From: Mycobacterium decipiens
GTDB lineage: Bacteria > Actinomycetota > Actinomycetes > Mycobacteriales > Mycobacteriaceae
Reading direction: 5' to 3'
Assembly (NCBI RefSeq): GCF_963853665.1
Contig: NZ_OY970459.1
Location: 3,286,001-3,350,000 of the forward strand
DNA: 64,000 bases
The notes below the pieces were generated by a model that was given only the letters and a program-made list of their open reading frames with translations, ran no database searches and was not told where the DNA came from. This document shows, one piece after another, positions 5,994 through 62,776 of this stretch; positions within the stretch are counted from its first letter, which is position 1; each line of letters begins with the position of its first letter. Position numbers and translations under genes: made by a program.

Positions 5994-6932
5994 CTACTTG
6001 CTGCGGGAAGTGATGTGGCTGAGCAGGTCTCGTATTGCGCCGGCCGGCGGGGTGCGCCCGCCGACCCAGATTGCCCGAAGCTGGCGCCGCAGGTTCAGCG
6101 CGGGGATGTCAACCGCGCTCAATCGACCGAACGCCAGGTCATCGGCTATCGCCAATCGGCTCATCGCCGCCGGTCCCGCGCCAGCCAACACCGCGGCGCG
6201 CATGGCCGCGGCCGACGTCAGTTCGAGCACCGGTTGCGCTTGCTGCATGTCCTCCCCGAGCGCCTCACGTAACGCCGCTGTGAGTGAATCGCGGATGCCG
6301 GAGCGCGGTTCGCGAGTTACCAGAGGTGTCTGCGCGAGTTCGCGGGCACTCACTACTCGTGACCGCCGGGCCCACTTGTGACCCGGCGGCACGACGACGA
6401 CCAGTTCGTCGCGTGCGACCACGCAGCTGCCTAACCCCGTAGGAGAACCGGGGTTTTCGACGAAGCCAAGATCGGCGGTGCCGTCACGAACGGCGGCGAT
6501 GGCATGCTCGCTGTTGGTGGCGGTCAGGATCACCTGGGGGGCGGTGCCGCGGTGGCGCAGCTCGGCTGCCCGCAAGGACAGCAGCCAATGCGGCATGAGC
6601 TGTTCGGCTATCGTCTGGCTGGCCACCACCCTGATCCGCTGGCGGCCCTTGGTACGCAGCGAGCCGAGGCCGGCATCGACCTCGTTGGCGACTTCGAGCA
6701 AGCGGGCTGCCCATTCGGCGACGACGACGCCCGCGGGCGTAAGTTGTGAGCCACGAGTCGTGCGGACTGCCAACCTCACCCCGATCTGGGCCTCCATCGA
6801 TGCGAGCCGCCTTGACACAGCTTGTTGGGTCAACCCGAGTTCACGCGCGGCGCCGCCGAGACTGCCTGCCTCAGCGATGGCCAGAAAGATCTCAAACGAC
6901 GTGAGCTCGGGCATGCGGGAACTGAGCGGCAT
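5994..6932 (-). CDS. LysR-family transcriptional regulator
   Basis: 312 residues, the same length as Rv2282c. The N-terminus has the LysR winged helix-turn-helix (about residues 8-66: F-L-A-I-A-E-A-G-S-L-G-G-A-A-R-E-L-G-L-T-Q-Q-A-V-S-R) and the rest is a periplasmic-binding-like effector domain. In M. tuberculosis the equivalent follows pitB directly; here the sulfur operon lies between them. It is a plausible regulator of the two operators at 2552 and 7642 because LysR proteins often control sulfur assimilation. That link is inference only. Confidence 0.9.
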   Translation of the reverse strand: MPLSSRMPELTSFEIFLAIAEAGSLGGAARELGLTQQAVSRRLASMEAQIGVRLAVRTTRGSQLTPAGVVVAEWAARLLEVANEVDAGLGSLRTKGRQRIRVVASQTIAEQLMPHWLLSLRAAELRHRGTAPQVILTATNSEHAIAAVRDGTADLGFVENPGSPTGLGSCVVARDELVVVVPPGHKWARRSRVVSARELAQTPLVTREPRSGIRDSLTAALREALGEDMQQAQPVLELTSAAAMRAAVLAGAGPAAMSRLAIADDLAFGRLSAVDIPALNLRRQLRAIWVGGRTPPAGAIRDLLSHITSRSK

Positions 6933-55935: not shown

Positions 55936-56544
55936 CTAACCGATAGGCGCGGCCATACTGCCGAGCCCCCCGGACATATCACCAGCACCCCCGGACATAT
56001 CACCAGCACCCCCGGGCATATCACCAGCACCCCCGGGCATATCACCAGCACCCCCGGGCATATCACCAGCGCCCCCGGGCATATCACCAGCGCCCCCGGG
56101 CATATCACCAATGCCCCCGGGCATACCGCCATCCATCGGCGGTGGCGGTGCCAGAGGCGAAGGGTCCACAGCCGACGGTGGCGCAGCTGGCGGTAGCGGC
56201 GCAGCAGTGTATGGGCTGCCCTGGCACTGGGCTAGGTCGGGAAAGACCCCGCAACGGGGATCATTCGGGTTGTCGGGATAAGGCCAGGTGGGATCGGGGG
56301 CGTTTCCGGCGCCGTGGCACTGGCCTGCCTCGGGGTCGGCCGCGCAGCGGGGATCGTCCGGGTTGGTGGGAGGGCTACCGGGGTTGGGGCCCCGGAGAGG
56401 AACGGGTATACCGGGCATGTCTGCGACGCGGGGCGTCGCATTCGTCGGAACGGTCGCACCCGCAGCGGCTACTCCAATGAGTGCTACGGTCACAGCTGTT
56501 CTCGTCATCGCGCCGCGGATTGCCGCAACCACCGCCCAAGTCAT
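55936..56544 (-). CDS. Secreted protein with GDMPGGA heptapeptide repeats
   Basis: 202 residues from ATG 56544, chosen because AGGAG lies just upstream; ATG 56508 is an alternative. Signal peptide V-T-V-A-L-I-G-V-A-A-A-G-A-T. The mature N-half has two modules N-P-D/N-D-P-R-C-(A/G)-x-x-P-(E/D)-x-x-Q-C, a known mycobacterial motif. A Pro-rich linker follows, then about seven G-D-M-(P/S)-G-G-A repeats and a short end. It resembles secreted repeat proteins of the cell envelope; repeat number should vary between strains. Confidence 0.78.
   Translation of the reverse strand: MTWAVVAAIRGAMTRTAVTVALIGVAAAGATVPTNATPRVADMPGIPVPLRGPNPGSPPTNPDDPRCAADPEAGQCHGAGNAPDPTWPYPDNPNDPRCGVFPDLAQCQGSPYTAAPLPPAAPPSAVDPSPLAPPPPMDGGMPGGIGDMPGGAGDMPGGAGDMPGGAGDMPGGAGDMPGGAGDMSGGAGDMSGGLGSMAAPIG
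55966..56127. repeat. 21-bp coding tandem repeat
   Basis: About 7.5 units of the type CCCCCGGGCATATCACCAG plus two bases, differing at two or three positions per unit. It encodes the heptapeptide repeats of the secreted protein on the minus strand and is a natural VNTR candidate. Confidence 0.9.
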
Positions 56545-56782
56545 CCATCGCTCCTGACGTGCGGGACCCAACGAGCCGCACCAACGTTTGCCGCTACCGA
56601 CGCATCGCCGCATATGGTCGCATGCCCGCTTCCCATACGCCACGCGAAACAGCTATGACGCCCGTCTGGCCGGGCAGCAAAGCTTGAGGTTGGGGGTTTG
56701 AGGTTGCGGGGACGTGTCCGGCCCAGCGGATGAGTGGACGGCGTCGGTGCGCCCGCTCGCACATCCGTCCCTAGTGCTCGCT

Positions 56783-57382: not shown

Positions 57383-57463
57383 TTGCAGGTTTCCTTGTCT
57401 GTGCTGAGACCCACAGTAGAGGTGACGAGTCCGGCGTCAAAGGGCAGCATGAGATCCGTTGAC

Positions 57464-57558
57464 GAGGGCGCGGGGAAAAACAGAAAAAGTGAGGGATCGA
57501 AAGCCGCAGCCTCTGTGACCCCTCGCAGTTACCGCATGAAAGCGGGGTCCGCGCCCTC
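57464..57558 (-). ncRNA. Candidate structured RNA downstream of the reverse transcriptase
   Basis: A perfect 10-bp stem closes the element: GAGGGCGCGG (57464-57473) pairs with 57549-57558. Inside, on the minus strand, one hairpin pairs 57542-57545 with 57532-57535, and a second 7-bp hairpin pairs 57518-57524 with 57491-57497 (one G-U). The transcript thus folds as a three-way junction with a U-rich single strand (CUUUUUCUGUUUUUC) before the closing strand. U-runs are rare in this genome. The element begins 28 bp after the RT stop. It could be an RT template/cofactor RNA or a leader of the methyltransferase gene; the fold is drawn by eye. Confidence 0.5.
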
Positions 57559-57585
57559 TTGACGATCGAACCGCACGCCCCGCGG

Positions 57586-58917
57586 TCAGCGCAAGTTCCG
57601 CAGGTGTACCAGCGACACTAGGCCCATTTCGCGCCGCAGCACCGCGGGCGGCAGCTGCCGAAAGCCGCGCACGCCCGCTTGCCCCGTTGCCGCCTGCACG
57701 ATCTTTCGCGTGATCCGGAAGTCCACGTCCTTGAGCACCCCCCGGTCGGTCGTCGTGTCCAGGAGTGCGGACAAGCCAGCAACCGCAAACGGATTCGTCG
57801 GGTCGAGCATGACGTTTGTGGCCACCACGAGATGGCGCGCTCGCTGGCTGGCTGCCAATCGCGAGAGCGCAGCCGCTGCCGCATCGATGCGTGTCGCAAT
57901 GCGTCCGACGAAGCGGCGCAGCCGATGCGGCGCCAAGGCCATGGTGCCGGCATGGCCGACCGACATGCCAAGGCAGTCGATCCGGTTGCGCCCACGATAG
58001 GCGGGGTCCTCGGCGGAGGGTTGGCCCGTTGCGCTCAGGGCGGTGCGCAGCTCCTTCTCCAGTTTCCGTTTGACGCCCAGGTCATCGAGGAGTGCATCGA
58101 TCCGGGCATCCGCCTTGTGCAGCGCGGCGAGGTCAGGATGGGCGATGATGAAGTCGTCGTTGTATCGGGCGTAAAACACGCCTTCGATGCCGACGATTGC
58201 CCTGTCCATCGGTGCGACCGCCAGATTTCCCAGCACCGGGACAAGAGGCGTTCCCATGGCGACGCCGTAGCGCCGGGTGAACTGCGCACCGTCGGGATCT
58301 CGCACTACGGGTCGGACGAGGGCGGTGATGAGATTCCATGCGTCCGGCCCGATGTCGCCGCTCGGGCTGCCAAGCGCCGCCACCTCGCGCAGGGTGCGCC
58401 ACAGGGCCGCGTTGGGGCCGACCGGCAGATGGTCTCCGTAGTGTTCGAAATCGGATTGCAGGACATAAAGCGGCGGGCCTTTCACCCCCACCCGCTTGCG
58501 ATGGGCGCGGACGAATCCGGCGAGCGCCCGCACCGCGGCCACGTTCGTCGAACCGGGCAGGTAGGAATAGACGCCGGGAAGGCCGTAGCAGCGCGCGTTG
58601 TGCGTAAGAAGCTGAAAGAGTGCCGATCCGACTACGTGGTCGATGAATGCGGGCGCATGGGCGGCGCGAAGCTTGCCGTCGGTTTCGAGAGACCAGAGGT
58701 CAACCGGCTGTGGCCGGTATTGGCCGGTGGTGATGCTGCGGGCGATTGCCCGGGACAGGGTTCGGCGTTGGTTCGCGGTGCTGAAATAGGTGACACCGCC
58801 GCCCACCTCGCCGAAAGCCGATCCGTGCTGCCTTTTTTTGGCGAAGATCCGCAGAATCGTGTCTTCATACGTTTTCGGCTCCGCCAGTCGTCGCGCTATG
58901 TCGATGGGTTCAGTCAT
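57586..58917 (-). CDS. Reverse transcriptase, stand-alone, unassigned group
   Basis: 443 residues from ATG 58917, which overlaps the upstream gene by 8 bp. RT core: the conserved N-terminal Y-F-S-T-A-N-Q-R-R and G-K-L-R-A-A-H-A-P-A-F-I-D-H (motifs 1-2); motif A L-Q-S-D-F-E-H-Y-G-D with Asp156; motif B G-V-A-M-G-T-P-L-V-P-V-L-G-N; motif C Y-A-R-Y-N-D-D with Asp254-Asp255; motif E C-L-G-M-S-V at 315. All catalytic residues are intact. About 125 residues follow, helical, with no maturase, HNH or zinc finger. It is therefore not a group II intron RT. It fits the broad unknown-group/Abi-like RTs, many of which act in phage defence; the exact group cannot be set by eye. Confidence 0.93.
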   Translation of the reverse strand: MTEPIDIARRLAEPKTYEDTILRIFAKKRQHGSAFGEVGGGVTYFSTANQRRTLSRAIARSITTGQYRPQPVDLWSLETDGKLRAAHAPAFIDHVVGSALFQLLTHNARCYGLPGVYSYLPGSTNVAAVRALAGFVRAHRKRVGVKGPPLYVLQSDFEHYGDHLPVGPNAALWRTLREVAALGSPSGDIGPDAWNLITALVRPVVRDPDGAQFTRRYGVAMGTPLVPVLGNLAVAPMDRAIVGIEGVFYARYNDDFIIAHPDLAALHKADARIDALLDDLGVKRKLEKELRTALSATGQPSAEDPAYRGRNRIDCLGMSVGHAGTMALAPHRLRRFVGRIATRIDAAAAALSRLAASQRARHLVVATNVMLDPTNPFAVAGLSALLDTTTDRGVLKDVDFRITRKIVQAATGQAGVRGFRQLPPAVLRREMGLVSLVHLRNLR

Positions 58918-61021
58918 GGCGGGCAGACCCCACGGTGTCCATGCAACCCCAGCTGAAACGCCAAGCCTGCACGGTTTGCAACCAGCGTTTGAATACTGCG
59001 GGTTCGGGATCAGGCGGCAAAAGAAAGAGTTGGCGCAGTCTTCCGTCGTGATACAGCGGAGTGAGCAAGCGGCCAGCCAACGGAACAACGATCGCGCCGC
59101 TTTCCAGGCTTGTTACCGCCGCTGGCAATGCCGCCGCGAGAACGGCTTGCTCGAGGGTGCGCATGTCGCGTGATCCGTCGCGCGTTTCCAGGTCGAAGAC
59201 GATGCCATCGGCAAAAAGCGTACGAAATTCGGAGGTCAGAGCTTCCACATCGCCCCCCTGCGGCGATACGTCATTAATCGGGCGTATCCACTTCTCGGCG
59301 ATGAGCCGATCTAGCGCCGCACGTCCGCTCGCCGTCGGCGTTCCCAGGGCGTTGCCGCGGTTCGCGGCGCCACCCGTGCTCGCTTGCAGCGCCAGATGAG
59401 CGTCTTGCTTCCAATCACCGTTTGCGCATCGGTCGCGATAGACCCGTCGTTCGTAATAGACAAGTGTCGTTGCCGATCGGAACGCGAAATGCCCCTTGCC
59501 GCCAAAGGTTTGCAGCATCAGTTTCACCGCGGCGGATCTCTGCTTCGACGCGATCGAGTCCGGGATCGCGATGCTGCCGACAAGCACCGGCCCGGGCTCT
59601 CGGGCGAGCGCGCGCATCCAGTCCCCCAACATCAGCAGCGTCGGGGGCGGGGGCGGTCGGCGGTCTTGAAGATGCTGCGCGTTGATCAGCACGATGAGTT
59701 GGGTGATCATCGCCGCCGTGATCTCAATGAGGTCGGAGGCGGGATTGCGGTCGATCCAGACAAGCCACAACAACACGGCCAACAGCACGATGCTGGCCAG
59801 GTGTGTGCCGAAATGGCCCTCAGCGAACAGGCGAATCTGGTAGATGCCAATCACACTGCGGACGACAAAGAGCGGCAGGATGGCGAGCAGGAAGCTCGGC
59901 GGTACGTCGTGCAGGACGACCAGCCCGAGCGCGGCGGCAAGAGACCAAAAGAACAGTGCGATGACCGGCGCCATCCACAGGGTCCTATGAAAGTAGAAGA
60001 CGCGAAATTCCCGAAGGGCCGGGATGCCGCACAGCCGGACGAAATCGAAATAGAAAAGGCCCGCGCCCTCGTATGCGCCACGGAACAACGGCAGAACCAG
60101 ATAGAAAAACTGGAACGTATCGACTTGCCGCCAGGCCGAAGCGCCGGCGGTGAGGTCGAAGGACCGAGTGCTCGTCCCGTATATGCCAACGATCCCAAGA
60201 ACGAGTGCGGCGTCCATGCGCAGCGCAAGCCCCGACAGGATCGTCTGCAAGCCTAGCCAGGGTGGAATCTGCGGAAGCTGCCGCCAGAAGGCGTAAGCGG
60301 GTGCCACGAGTCTCGGCCAAAGTCCGGTCAGCCGATAGACCTCGAGCGTGTAGCGCACGGTGATCCAGATGCCGATCGCATTCGACGCGATGATCGCAAT
60401 GATGATCGCGGCAGTCGGGTAGAAGTAAAGGCCGACGCTGAGCAATCCCAGCTGCACGACGGTCGGCGCGAACATTAACGAAATGGGCCGGTATACCCGC
60501 CGTGTGGCGTATATCCCGGAATGAACCACCCGGACGGGAAAGCCCAGCGCAAGCTCGAGGACGACCAGGAACGCATAGAGGTGCGCGACCGGATCGTGGC
60601 CGGATGGACGCAGGAGCGCCAGCACAACACCGGCAATGATCATCAGAATCACCGCCACGATCACCGAGAGGACAAGCCAGCAGCCGATCTCACGTTCGGC
60701 CGCATCCCGTTCCCCGGACCGTGCGAACGCCCTCAGCCGCTGCCGCATTACCTCCAGCAGCCCCCACCACCCGCCGCCGACGATCAGGCTGCCGATCCGC
60801 AGCACCATCACGGTAAACGCCGCCAGGCCGCCAAGACTGGAGAGAAGAATCAGGAATTCGATGACGTGGACGGCGAATCGTGTCGTGTCGAGCAGCAGCG
60901 CATACCGCAGCCGGTAGCGGAAGTACTTGAAGATCCTGCCGGTGAGCAGGCTCGTATACAGGGAGACCGTGCGGTGTTCCCGGCGCCGGATGCGCTCGAA
61001 CCAGCGGTCGATCTCGTTCAC
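58910..61021 (-). CDS. Flippase-like polytopic membrane protein with C-terminal soluble domain, partner of RT
   Basis: 703 residues from GTG 61021. Residues 40-460 hold about 12-14 hydrophobic helices with the look of MATE/MviN/Wzx-type lipid-oligosaccharide exporters (a G-G-G-W-W-G-L-L-E-V-M-R-Q-R segment in the second helix pair, paired helices separated by basic loops). A Pro run (R-R-P-P-P-P-P) at about 470 leads into a soluble domain of about 230 residues that I do not recognise. It contains G-G-K-G-H-F-A-F-R-S-A-T-T-L-V-Y-Y-E-R-R. The 3' end overlaps the RT start by 8 bp, so both proteins are translationally coupled. Ile-rich codon use and lower GC than the neighbours suggest transfer. 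Confidence 0.8.
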   Translation of the reverse strand: MNEIDRWFERIRRREHRTVSLYTSLLTGRIFKYFRYRLRYALLLDTTRFAVHVIEFLILLSSLGGLAAFTVMVLRIGSLIVGGGWWGLLEVMRQRLRAFARSGERDAAEREIGCWLVLSVIVAVILMIIAGVVLALLRPSGHDPVAHLYAFLVVLELALGFPVRVVHSGIYATRRVYRPISLMFAPTVVQLGLLSVGLYFYPTAAIIIAIIASNAIGIWITVRYTLEVYRLTGLWPRLVAPAYAFWRQLPQIPPWLGLQTILSGLALRMDAALVLGIVGIYGTSTRSFDLTAGASAWRQVDTFQFFYLVLPLFRGAYEGAGLFYFDFVRLCGIPALREFRVFYFHRTLWMAPVIALFFWSLAAALGLVVLHDVPPSFLLAILPLFVVRSVIGIYQIRLFAEGHFGTHLASIVLLAVLLWLVWIDRNPASDLIEITAAMITQLIVLINAQHLQDRRPPPPPTLLMLGDWMRALAREPGPVLVGSIAIPDSIASKQRSAAVKLMLQTFGGKGHFAFRSATTLVYYERRVYRDRCANGDWKQDAHLALQASTGGAANRGNALGTPTASGRAALDRLIAEKWIRPINDVSPQGGDVEALTSEFRTLFADGIVFDLETRDGSRDMRTLEQAVLAAALPAAVTSLESGAIVVPLAGRLLTPLYHDGRLRQLFLLPPDPEPAVFKRWLQTVQAWRFSWGCMDTVGSARHD

Positions 61022-61089
61022 TGGACAGGTTCTCCGCGAAATTCACCGCCACGGCGTGAAAGGCTGTACTCCGTTAATCGTTTAGGCGA

Positions 61090-61881
61090 GTGTGGTGGAG
61101 CGTGCAACGAGGCGACGTAACCGTATTCTCCATTTCGGCCGGACTGGCGGCGATGGTCGTCGCGGCCGTCTCCTTCAGCCTGCTCGTCACCGATCGCGCG
61201 CCGCATTCGTCCGGGAACCAATCCGGAAGCAGCACGTCGAGCTTGCTTGTTGTGACTTGGGGCCCCAGCCTTTGCAAGGTTGAGCCGTCCAACCCGGGAT
61301 GCACCTCCGGGCATGTTGGCGACATGGGGCGGACATTGATTCTTCACGGGCTTTGGCCCCAGCCGCCTTCCGAACAGTCCTGTGGGGCGCCAAAGCGGGT
61401 CGACGATCGGGCCCATGGCCTAGAAGATGCCGACATGTCGTCCCTGAATCTGCCGGAGGACGTGCAATCGAGGTTGCAGTCGATGATGTCGGACGTCGCG
61501 GTGATGGTGCCCCACGAGTGGCGTACCCATGGCACCTGTTCCGGTGTCACACCGGCCGAGTATTTCGGCGATGCCGTTGCACTCACCGACCAGGTCAGCA
61601 AGATTCTCGATCCGGTGTTCCGCAAGCATGAGGGTGGGCGATTGTCGCTTGGCGCGGTGCGTGACCGGTTCGATGCCGAATTTGGCGCGGGGACGGGCGA
61701 TCGTGTCGGTCTGACCTGCCGCGACGTCGACAACAGGGAGATCGTCGTTTACGAGGTGCACCTGTCGCTTCCTCCCGTTGTCGATTTGCGGACCGCCGAG
61801 AACACGTTGTCGCTGGGGCACTTACTCGTCAAAGGCCCAACGATATCCGGCGGGTGTTGGCTCGGGCGCGTACCCCAATGA
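61090..61881 (+). CDS. Secreted RNase T2
   Basis: 263 residues. Endoribonuclease of the T2 family with both active-site blocks: I-L-H-G-L-W-P-Q (His86) and H-E-W-R-T-H-G-T-C (His142, Glu143, His147). An N-terminal hydrophobic segment (S-A-G-L-A-A-M-V-V-A-A-V-S-F-S-L-L-V) exports or anchors it. Cys pairs suit an extracytoplasmic protein. Start GTG 61090 is weakly supported; GTG 61102 is possible. It is divergent from the RT operon with only 68 bp between. I do not recall this gene in M. tuberculosis. Confidence 0.9.
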   Translation: MWWSVQRGDVTVFSISAGLAAMVVAAVSFSLLVTDRAPHSSGNQSGSSTSSLLVVTWGPSLCKVEPSNPGCTSGHVGDMGRTLILHGLWPQPPSEQSCGAPKRVDDRAHGLEDADMSSLNLPEDVQSRLQSMMSDVAVMVPHEWRTHGTCSGVTPAEYFGDAVALTDQVSKILDPVFRKHEGGRLSLGAVRDRFDAEFGAGTGDRVGLTCRDVDNREIVVYEVHLSLPPVVDLRTAENTLSLGHLLVKGPTISGGCWLGRVPQ

Positions 61882-61975
61882 CCGACGCGTCGTTCATCGG
61901 GTGCGGGCTCAAGCAGCCCCGAGCCGGCGGATTCGGTCTAGGCTGGCTCCACCCAACCAGCAAAGGATACTGGTC

Positions 61976-62776
61976 ATGACGGGGCGGCTTGCCCAAAAGG
62001 TCGCAGTGATCTCCGGTGGCGGAACCGGCATCGGCGCGGCCATCGCAAAGCGGTTCGCCGCAGAGGGGGCTCGAGTGGTGGTCGCGGGCCGGCGGCCCGA
62101 GCCGATCGAGGCCGTCGCCGCCGACATCGGCGGGGTGGCCGTCGCCGCCGACATCAGCGTGACCGACCATGCGACGGGCGCCATCGCCGCCGCGCTGACC
62201 CACTTTGGCGGGCTCGACATTGTTGTCGCTAACGCCGGCGTCACATCGGGCGGCGATGTGTTGTCGGTTCGCGACGACGATTGGCAGCAGCTGTTGGATG
62301 TGAATGTGACTGGGGCGATGAAGCTCGCCCGGGCGGCCTTGCCGGCGCTCATCGACCGCGGCGGAGGGTCCATCGTCAATATCTCGTCGGTGAGCGGCTT
62401 ATCGGCGTCTCCCGCGCATGCGGGCTATGGCGTGAGCAAATCGGCGTTGCTGGCGCTGACCCGGTCGATGGCCTATGACTATGGCCGCCAACGCATTCGA
62501 GTGAACACGGTGTGCCCCGGCTGGGTGCGCACGCCGATGGCCGACCAGGCGATGGATGCCTTGGCCGACACGAAAGACATCAGCCGCGAAGAGGCGTACC
62601 GACTGGTCGCCGCGGATCTGCCGCTGGGGCGGGTGGCGAGCCCAGAAGAGATCGCACACTGCTGTTTGTTTCTCGCCTCCGAGGAGGCTTCCTTTGTCAC
62701 GGGCGCGGTCTTGGTCGCAGATGGCGGCGCTGAGATCGTCGGCGTGGGCACGCTGGCATTCGTCGACAACGGTTGA
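61976..62776 (+). CDS. Short-chain dehydrogenase/reductase
   Basis: 266 residues from ATG 61976 (AAAGGA upstream). S-G-G-G-T-G-I-G cofactor loop, A-D-I-S, N-A-G-V, catalytic S-S-V-S-G and Y-G-V-S-K, C-terminal V-T-G-A-V-L-V-A-D-G-G. Classical SDR of the 3-oxoacyl-reductase-like kind. Downstream of RNase T2 but with its own ribosome site. Confidence 0.92.
   Translation: MTGRLAQKVAVISGGGTGIGAAIAKRFAAEGARVVVAGRRPEPIEAVAADIGGVAVAADISVTDHATGAIAAALTHFGGLDIVVANAGVTSGGDVLSVRDDDWQQLLDVNVTGAMKLARAALPALIDRGGGSIVNISSVSGLSASPAHAGYGVSKSALLALTRSMAYDYGRQRIRVNTVCPGWVRTPMADQAMDALADTKDISREEAYRLVAADLPLGRVASPEEIAHCCLFLASEEASFVTGAVLVADGGAEIVGVGTLAFVDNG

What the first reader, a model, noticed from the sequence alone, without database searches (positions are those of the whole stretch)
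57464..61021. Two-gene reverse transcriptase operon with a flippase-like membrane partner
A catalytically intact RT (Asp156, Y-N-D-D at 252-255) is translationally coupled to a 703-residue polytopic membrane protein that carries an unrecognised 230-residue soluble domain. There is no intron maturase part and no diversity-generating template repeat. RTs of the unknown-group/Abi type are known phage-defence enzymes, and some are encoded with accessory genes, but I know of no described system that pairs an RT with a MATE/Wzx-like protein of this design. The segment interrupts a conserved backbone (between Rv2304c- and Rv2307c-like genes), as defence islands do. Working idea: the RT makes or senses a nucleic acid and the membrane protein is the effector.
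Basis: partly seen in the sequence, partly recalled or inferred. Interest (0 to 1): 0.95.

Follow-up and report, generated by a model that had tools for sequence, protein, structure and literature searches.

The report
Four-part reverse transcriptase and RNA module
A reverse transcriptase, a transporter-like membrane protein, an exported RNA-cutting enzyme and a structured RNA are found together at different chromosomal sites, which suggests a new relative of the bacterial systems that make repetitive DNA from an RNA template.

Summary
RT (57586-58917, YNDD) and a 703-residue MOP-fold (MATE/Wzx-type) membrane protein overlap by 8 nt; the partner was seen in 42 of 43 public loci (the 43rd is cut inside the RT). 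Two parts were missed. (1) A divergent, exported RNase T2 (61090-61881) lies beside them in 40 of 40 loci with upstream DNA, one of them alphaproteobacterial. (2) A ~95-nt structured RNA (57464-57558, minus) with covarying stems and a promoter-like box follows the RT. In 198 genomes of the genus it was found in the 21 with a full-length RT and in none of the 176 without RT (18 of the 21 resemble the model's own rows). In the alphaproteobacterium it lies elsewhere, between two RNase T2 genes. Its loop has U-runs and often an A-B-A' pattern like the DRT10 template. The RT family is its own clade, beside DRT9 in a small tree (SH-aLRT 82). Best reading: the RT copies the loop into repetitive, mostly A-rich cDNA that controls the membrane protein, with RNase T2 as extracytoplasmic effector or sensor. 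Parts and linkage are shown; templating is likely; effector logic and phage defence are inferred (0 of 10 neighbours scanned matched a defence model).

The parts
57464..57558 (-). Structured ncRNA: closing stem (10 bp in the window, 57549-57558 / 57464-57473; inner 6 bp in all) enclosing two hairpins and a single-stranded template-like loop
   Evidence: Alignment of 43; 26 pairs, 95.9% of cells paired, 10 pairs with two-sided changes, 49 cells vs 11.9 in shuffles, 0 of 500 as high; CM hit 57462-57560, 110.4 bits, the window being one of the model's rows
57474..57490 (-). Putative template loop ACUUUUUCUGUUUUUCC (A-B-A' = UUUUUC-UG-UUUUUC; predicted cDNA unit CAGAAAAA)
   Evidence: the assignment as template is inference
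57565..57594 (-). Promoter-like boxes of the ncRNA: -35 TTGCGC (57589-57594, in the last two RT codons), 18-nt spacer, -10 TTCGAT (57565-57570)
   Evidence: Same arrangement in 35 of 43 loci, shuffled mean 0.34, maximum 3; box types recalled as consensus
57586..58917 (-). Reverse transcriptase, 443 aa, YNDD, D156; C-terminal SLV..RN with S435 invariant in the 40 rows of A2
58910..61021 (-). MOP-superfamily-fold membrane protein, 703 aa, with C-terminal alpha/beta domain (about 456-695)
61090..61881 (+). RNase T2-family protein with N-terminal hydrophobic segment; motifs HGLWP and HEWRTHG
   Evidence: Pfam PF00445 E 6.1e-12; next to the pair in 40 of 40 testable loci; motifs
57457..61874 (.). 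Extent of the module as conserved DNA between two different chromosomal sites
   Evidence: 80% identity over 4451 columns to G026, where the module lies near 77 kb while the window's cutinase and hydrolase genes lie near 3.54 Mb without it

Best explanation
It is a four-part mobile module: RNase T2, MOP-fold membrane protein, RT and template ncRNA. The ncRNA is made from its own promoter, folds into a closed three-way junction and binds the RT. The loop between its main hairpin and the closing stem lies in the active site and is copied again and again. This gives short-repeat, mostly A-rich cDNA (window: CAGAAAAA units if A-B-A' realignment as in DRT10 holds; poly-dA if it slips as in DRT9), perhaps primed from the conserved C-terminal serine. 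The cDNA or the ribonucleoprotein sets the state of the membrane protein through its C-terminal domain. When this is disturbed, most plausibly by a phage, the membrane protein changes transport or permeability. The RNase T2 outside the membrane is the killing or sensing arm, for example by gaining access to cell RNA. Shown: parts, linkage, RNA structure, co-occurrence, different chromosomal sites. Inferred: templating, product, gating, defence.
For: Linkage: partner 42 of 43 loci, RNase T2 40 of 40 testable. Genus sample of 198, own genome included: RT in 22; RNase T2 in all 22 (in G852 below the Pfam cut-off and frameshifted) and in 4 of 176 others; ncRNA in 21 of 22 (G852, with a truncated RT, is the exception) and 0 of 176 (Fisher 1.7e-25 and 2e-27, ignoring relatedness). 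Alphaproteobacterial locus L052, not in the model: RT 44%, partner 33%, two RNase T2 genes, ncRNA 51 bits with every model pair formed. Covariation. Promoter-like boxes. The loop lies behind a stable stem-loop and shows A-B-A' more than partner-swapped loops (56 and 35 of 5000 as high), as described for DRT10 (PMC12632851). RT fold like group II, DGR and DRT9 RTs; a DRT9 RT is the best solved match by profile (2.4e-7); tree. DRT10 likewise needs a membrane partner.
Against: No expression, binding or cDNA data. 18 of the 21 genomes with the ncRNA carry a core identical to a row of the model, so only G026, G850 and G860 are fresh finds there; the zero among 176 stands, but that search used strict filters. 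The outer four pairs of the closing stem fail in 4 to 15 of 43 rows. The A-B-A' signal is weak: loops are related and U-runs repeat trivially; one loop, L010, has no run over two U. The -35-like box often lies in conserved RT codons, which may explain it. 0 of 10 neighbours match PADLOC; no close RT relative in plasmids, phages or viral contigs. RNase T2 persists without the rest in 4 genomes, so it is not obviously a toxin needing control. In G852 the partner gene is intact though RT is truncated.
Confidence: 0.5

Rival explanations
1. The RNA element is only a transcription terminator or 3' UTR of the operon, and the RT acts untemplated or on other RNA.
For: It lies 18-103 nt behind the RT stop in 43 of 43 actinobacterial rows and has a hairpin followed by U-runs.
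Against: The U-runs are enclosed by an outer stem whose inner six pairs form in all 43 rows. Promoter-like boxes sit in front of it. In L052 it lies between two RNase T2 genes on the strand opposite to them, not behind the RT. Non-stem letters are conserved; found with full-length RT only.
Confidence: 0.12
2. Retron-like element: the closing stem acts as a1/a2, the RT primes on the RNA and makes one short RNA-linked DNA; partner and RNase T2 are the effectors.
For: RT plus closed-stem ncRNA plus effector genes; a 17-nt loop next to the closing stem.
Against: In the tree the six retron RTs form another clade. Retron profiles match weakly or in few of the 40 members. No long msd-like stem in the model.
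Confidence: 0.13
3. Not defence but envelope or nucleic-acid physiology: RNase T2 processes extracytoplasmic RNA, the MOP protein moves a substrate, and the RT-RNA product is a regulator.
For: 0 of 10 neighbours scanned match a defence model and several are metabolic; no plasmid, phage or viral-contig relative of the RT. An RNase T2 homologue is proposed as an envelope sensor in Acinetobacter (passages of PMC10249906), though that one is said to lack the catalytic residues.
Against: Patchy presence, 22 of 198 genomes of the genus, different chromosomal sites and decay look more like an accessory conflict module.
Confidence: 0.25
4. Defence against RNA phages: RNase T2 destroys RNA outside, the RT handles phage RNA, and the MurJ-like fold is a decoy for lysis proteins that target MurJ.
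For: Fold matches include MurJ bound to single-gene lysis proteins.
Against: MATE and Wzx match better than MurJ; no RNA phages of mycobacteria are known to me.
Confidence: 0.04

Closest known systems
DRT10 (UG17 RT + ncRNA + SLATT; PMC12632851, outline, passages and sections 6 and 10 read)
   Same: RT, separate structured ncRNA, co-encoded membrane protein; A-B-A' loop behind a stable stem-loop; a C-terminal serine (S435 invariant here; DRT10 is said to prime on a C-terminal serine)
   Different: Partner is a 703-residue MOP-fold protein, not SLATT; RNase T2 added; ncRNA behind the RT or between RNase T2 genes, not upstream of the membrane gene; UG17 profile matches 25 of 40 members at 1e-5
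DRT9 (UG28 RT + ncRNA; PMC12483538, passages read)
   Same: Drt9 profile matches 40 of 40 members with the best single E-value, 2e-17, but generic RT, Cas1_IIIb and UG4 models also match 40 of 40; neighbour in the tree (82); U-run of four or more in 43 of 44 loops
   Different: L052 RT scores 60.6 bits against 430-715 for the three high-scoring DRT9 RTs of the same search; 14-16% identity in fold alignments; two further conserved genes
Retrons
   Same: RT, ncRNA and effectors in one locus
   Different: Different RT clade and RNA shape
MATE / Wzx / MurJ (MOP superfamily)
   Same: Fold of the partner
   Different: No transporter family of Pfam at 0.01 in 38 members and no PDB sequence at 0.1; extra C-terminal domain
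RNase T2 family (PF00445)
   Same: Both active-site motifs and a hydrophobic N-terminus
   Different: Fixed genomic link to an RT-ncRNA module

Membership tests
UG/DRT-type RT system with templating ncRNA (Class 2) | RT with intact catalytic residues and a covarying ncRNA at the locus | tested here: met
UG/DRT-type RT system with templating ncRNA (Class 2) | RT groups with UG RTs in a phylogeny | tested here: inconclusive
   Beside DRT9 with SH-aLRT 82 on a 2.27 stem, quick tree, midpoint root; DRT9 was the only named UG group in the set
UG/DRT-type RT system with templating ncRNA (Class 2) | Repetitive cDNA copied from the ncRNA; phage defence | not testable with these tools
   Needs experiments
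DRT9 | RT scores as a DRT9 protein over full length | tested here: not met
   60.6 bits for the L052 RT against 430-715 for DRT9 RTs; window RT 47.1 bits over 63-277 of 488
DRT9 | Universally conserved poly-U in the ncRNA | tested here: inconclusive
   U-run of four or more in 43 of 44 loops; L010 has none over two
DRT10 | SLATT partner | tested here: not met
   Partner has MOP fold; no SLATT match in Pfam at 0.01 for 38 members scanned
DRT10 | A-B-A' template loop behind a stem-loop | tested here: inconclusive
   Two U-runs followed by the same letter in 36 of 44 loops; 56 of 5000 partner swaps as high
Retron | RT in the retron clade | tested here: not met
   Six retron RTs form a separate clade (retron labels)
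Group II intron / DGR | Maturase domain, intron RNA or template/variable repeats | tested here: inconclusive
   No Rfam match in 55-63 kb; Pfam shows RVT_1 only; group II model 44.5 bits against a cut-off of 300; no dedicated repeat scan was run
MOP superfamily (partner) | MOP fold | tested here: met
RNase T2 | Pfam match and active-site motifs | tested here: met
   E 6.1e-12; an ORF with HGLWP at the RNase T2 site of 40 of 40 loci and the window (ORFs were picked by that motif); HEW..HG in 41 of these 42 ORFs; L014 has Tyr for the first His of the second motif

The most novel reading that the evidence does not exclude
A new class of telomerase-like bacterial RT system in which programmed, lineage-specific tandem-repeat DNA made from a 95-nt RNA controls a MOP-type membrane transporter coupled to an extracytoplasmic ribonuclease: an RT module acting across the membrane.
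Probability: 0.33. Interest if true: 0.95.

Novelty: new variant of a known kind. Interest (0 to 1): 0.85.

Why it matters
If true it adds a four-part member to the RNA-templated DNA-synthesis systems, with an unstudied membrane effector and an exported nuclease, and gives many natural template variants (27 distinct loops) to test how template repeats set the product. It also offers a mycobacterial counterpart to systems that, as far as I recall, are studied mostly in enterobacteria, and a conserved small RNA for which Rfam 15 gave no match.

Tried and rejected
Looked for the RT in plasmids, phages and viral contigs, and for the partner in plasmids: only distant RTs (group II, Cas1-RT and others, under 60% identity and under 80% coverage). 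Rfam on 55-63 kb: nothing up to E 0.1. tRNA in 50-64 kb: none. GC profile shows no island-like shift. The stretch between RNase T2 and the partner was aligned in 17 sequences; no comparable conserved block was seen (output cut in its later part). Phylum sample: 1 of 296 genomes at 1e-8, the window's own; class of the alphaproteobacterium: itself plus two genomes with short weak hits, of 385; its order: 1 of 199, itself. More proteobacterial loci (Thiorhodovibrio, Hoeflea and others, proteins) could not be fetched, so the cross-phylum arrangement rests on one locus. The second ncRNA copy in G018 is a decayed piece with no module genes within the 12 kb fetched. The 21-bit hit in decayed L110 (E 0.0085) was taken as chance or remnant. 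DRT2, DRT3, DRT10 and other UG RTs are not in the tree because none was fetched as such; three DRT9 RTs, one from a cut contig, were. Group II labels in the tree: 11 of 13 pass the NCBIfam cut-off, L148 and L202 fall just short; retron labels rest on PADLOC for four and NCBIfam for two; 11 'other' RTs are unnamed. Literature: the listings (0 papers; 11; 6; 15 of 41; 15 of 481; 1; 12 of 30) showed no RT system with RNase T2 or a MOP partner by title and abstract start; the table of DRT1-9 in PMC13213688 (part 1 of 2 read) has none; the 2022 UG/Abi survey I looked for by a recalled DOI was not held. Absence from print is therefore not proven.

Full report
What is there. On the minus strand the RT gene (57586-58917, 443 aa) overlaps the end of the membrane-protein gene (58910-61021, 703 aa) by 8 nt. 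The RT has D156 and YNDD and a confident model (mean pLDDT 92.1) with the RT fold of group II, DGR, G2L4 and DRT9 enzymes. The membrane protein (mean pLDDT 82.4) has the MATE/Wzx/MurJ fold over about residues 21-456 and a further C-terminal domain; of 38 members scanned against Pfam one gave a weak match, to no transporter family.

How widely. The GTDB contig scan returned 43 loci: 42 on records titled as mycobacteria or other actinobacteria (L040 is labelled Bifidobacterium) and one from an alphaproteobacterial MAG, L052. The partner lies directly upstream in 42 of 43, in L031 and L032 cut by the contig start; the 43rd contig starts inside the RT. The RT family also occurs in other Pseudomonadota, such as Thiorhodovibrio and Hoeflea, whose loci I could not fetch.

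First missed part: RNase T2. The divergent gene at 61090-61881 is an RNase T2. A homologue lies in the same place in 40 of the 40 loci that have upstream DNA; L031, L032 and L042 are cut. L052 has two. Each of these loci has an ORF with HGLWP there (ORFs were picked by that motif), and 41 of the 42 ORFs, the window's included, keep HEW..HG. In 198 genomes of the genus, the window's own included, RNase T2 was found in 26: all 22 with the RT and 4 of 176 without it. In G852 the match is below the Pfam cut-off because the gene is frameshifted. A 23rd RT hit, in G853 at E 4.4e-9 over part of the model, was judged another RT and left out of the 22. The four lone RNase T2 genes are 47-59% identical to the window's and have no RT or partner within the stretch fetched, two of which end with the contig.

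Second missed part: the RNA. Just behind the RT stop (18-103 nt) 42 of 42 actinobacterial loci and the window carry a ~95-nt element. Its four helices are supported: 26 pairs, 95.9% of cells paired, 10 pairs and 49 cells with two-sided changes, against 5.1 and 11.9 in shuffles, none of 500 as high. The shuffles do not keep relatedness; sliding the partners by 1 to 3 columns gives at most 4 such pairs and 19 such cells. The inner six pairs of the closing stem form in 43 of 43; the outer four fail in 4, 9, 15 and 8 rows. A covariance model finds the RNA in 21 of 198 genomes, exactly those with a full-length RT, and in none of the 176 without RT (strict filters). 18 of the 21 carry a core identical to a row of the model, so only G026, G850 and G860 are fresh finds. 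The RT genome without it, G852, has a truncated RT. In L052, not in the model, it is found at 51 bits (E 6.4e-10) between the two RNase T2 genes, with all model pairs formed. So the RNA follows the module and not the RT's 3' end.

Promoter. In 35 of 43 loci a TTGNNN box lies 16-19 nt before a T(A/T)NNNT box, which ends 4-8 nt before the first helix; letter-shuffled upstream sequences give 0.34 on average and at most 3. I designed this search after seeing the pattern, and in many loci, as in the window, the -35-like box lies in the last, conserved RT codons, which could explain part of it.

Template. Between the second hairpin and the closing stem is a single-stranded loop of 15-17 nt (13 in L052). 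43 of 44 loops hold a U-run of four or more; L010 has none over two. In 36 of 44 two U-runs are followed by the same letter. The 27 distinct loops have longer shared words between halves than partner-swapped loops do (139 against 131.5; 56 of 5000 as high; for words with a non-U letter 124 against 101.9; 35 of 5000). Relatedness is not corrected for, so this is suggestive only. It is the A-B-A' arrangement reported for DRT10 (PMC12632851: passages, sections 6 and 10). DRT9 copies a conserved poly-U (PMC12483538, passages), and that reading is open too.

Kinship. In a quick tree of 48 RTs the 15 members of this family form one clade (100) on a long stem, placed beside three DRT9 RTs (82) and apart from group II (13), retron (6) and 11 unnamed RTs. 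Drt9, generic RT, Cas1_IIIb and UG4 models of PADLOC each match 40 of 40 members at 1e-5, Drt9 with the best single E-value. But the L052 member scores 60.6 bits with the Drt9 model where three DRT9 RTs score 430-715 and many group II-like RTs over 100. It is therefore not DRT9. Whether it belongs to UG Class 2 is open.

Mobility. In G026 the module is 80% identical over window 57457-61874 but lies near 77 kb, while the cutinase and hydrolase genes that flank it in the window lie near 3.54 Mb without it. Gene neighbourhoods in the other loci fall into several different sets. None of 10 neighbours scanned matched a defence model.

Mechanism. Most likely the RT binds the RNA and copies its loop repeatedly; the product or the complex controls the membrane protein, and the extracytoplasmic RNase T2 is its effector or sensor. 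My odds: loop templating 0.75; tandem repeats by realignment 0.35, poly-dA by slippage 0.3; control of the membrane protein 0.4; anti-phage role 0.5. No step has been tested experimentally.

Verdict. The finding is real and larger than reported: a four-part module. RT and partner have no model of their own in PADLOC 2023, the RNA no match in Rfam 15, and the listings and passages seen describe no such system.

Noticed in passing
L110 (unnamed congener G852): Decayed module: partner gene intact, RT truncated, RNase T2 frameshifted, ncRNA not found behind the RT (one 21-bit hit further on).
   Followed up: partly
L163 around 6116-6214: Second, decayed ncRNA copy in genome G018 (44.7 bits) with the loop altered and no module genes in the 12 kb fetched.
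   Followed up: partly
L106-L109: Lone RNase T2 genes 47-59% identical to the window's, without RT or partner in the stretch fetched.
   Followed up: partly
window 61844-62776 and L226 6990-7199: A short-chain dehydrogenase gene beside RNase T2 in the window has a partial match beside the ncRNA end in G026, hinting at a shared target region.
   Followed up: no
window 55936-56643 (minus): ORF whose C-terminal part is a run of MPGGAGD repeats.
   Followed up: no
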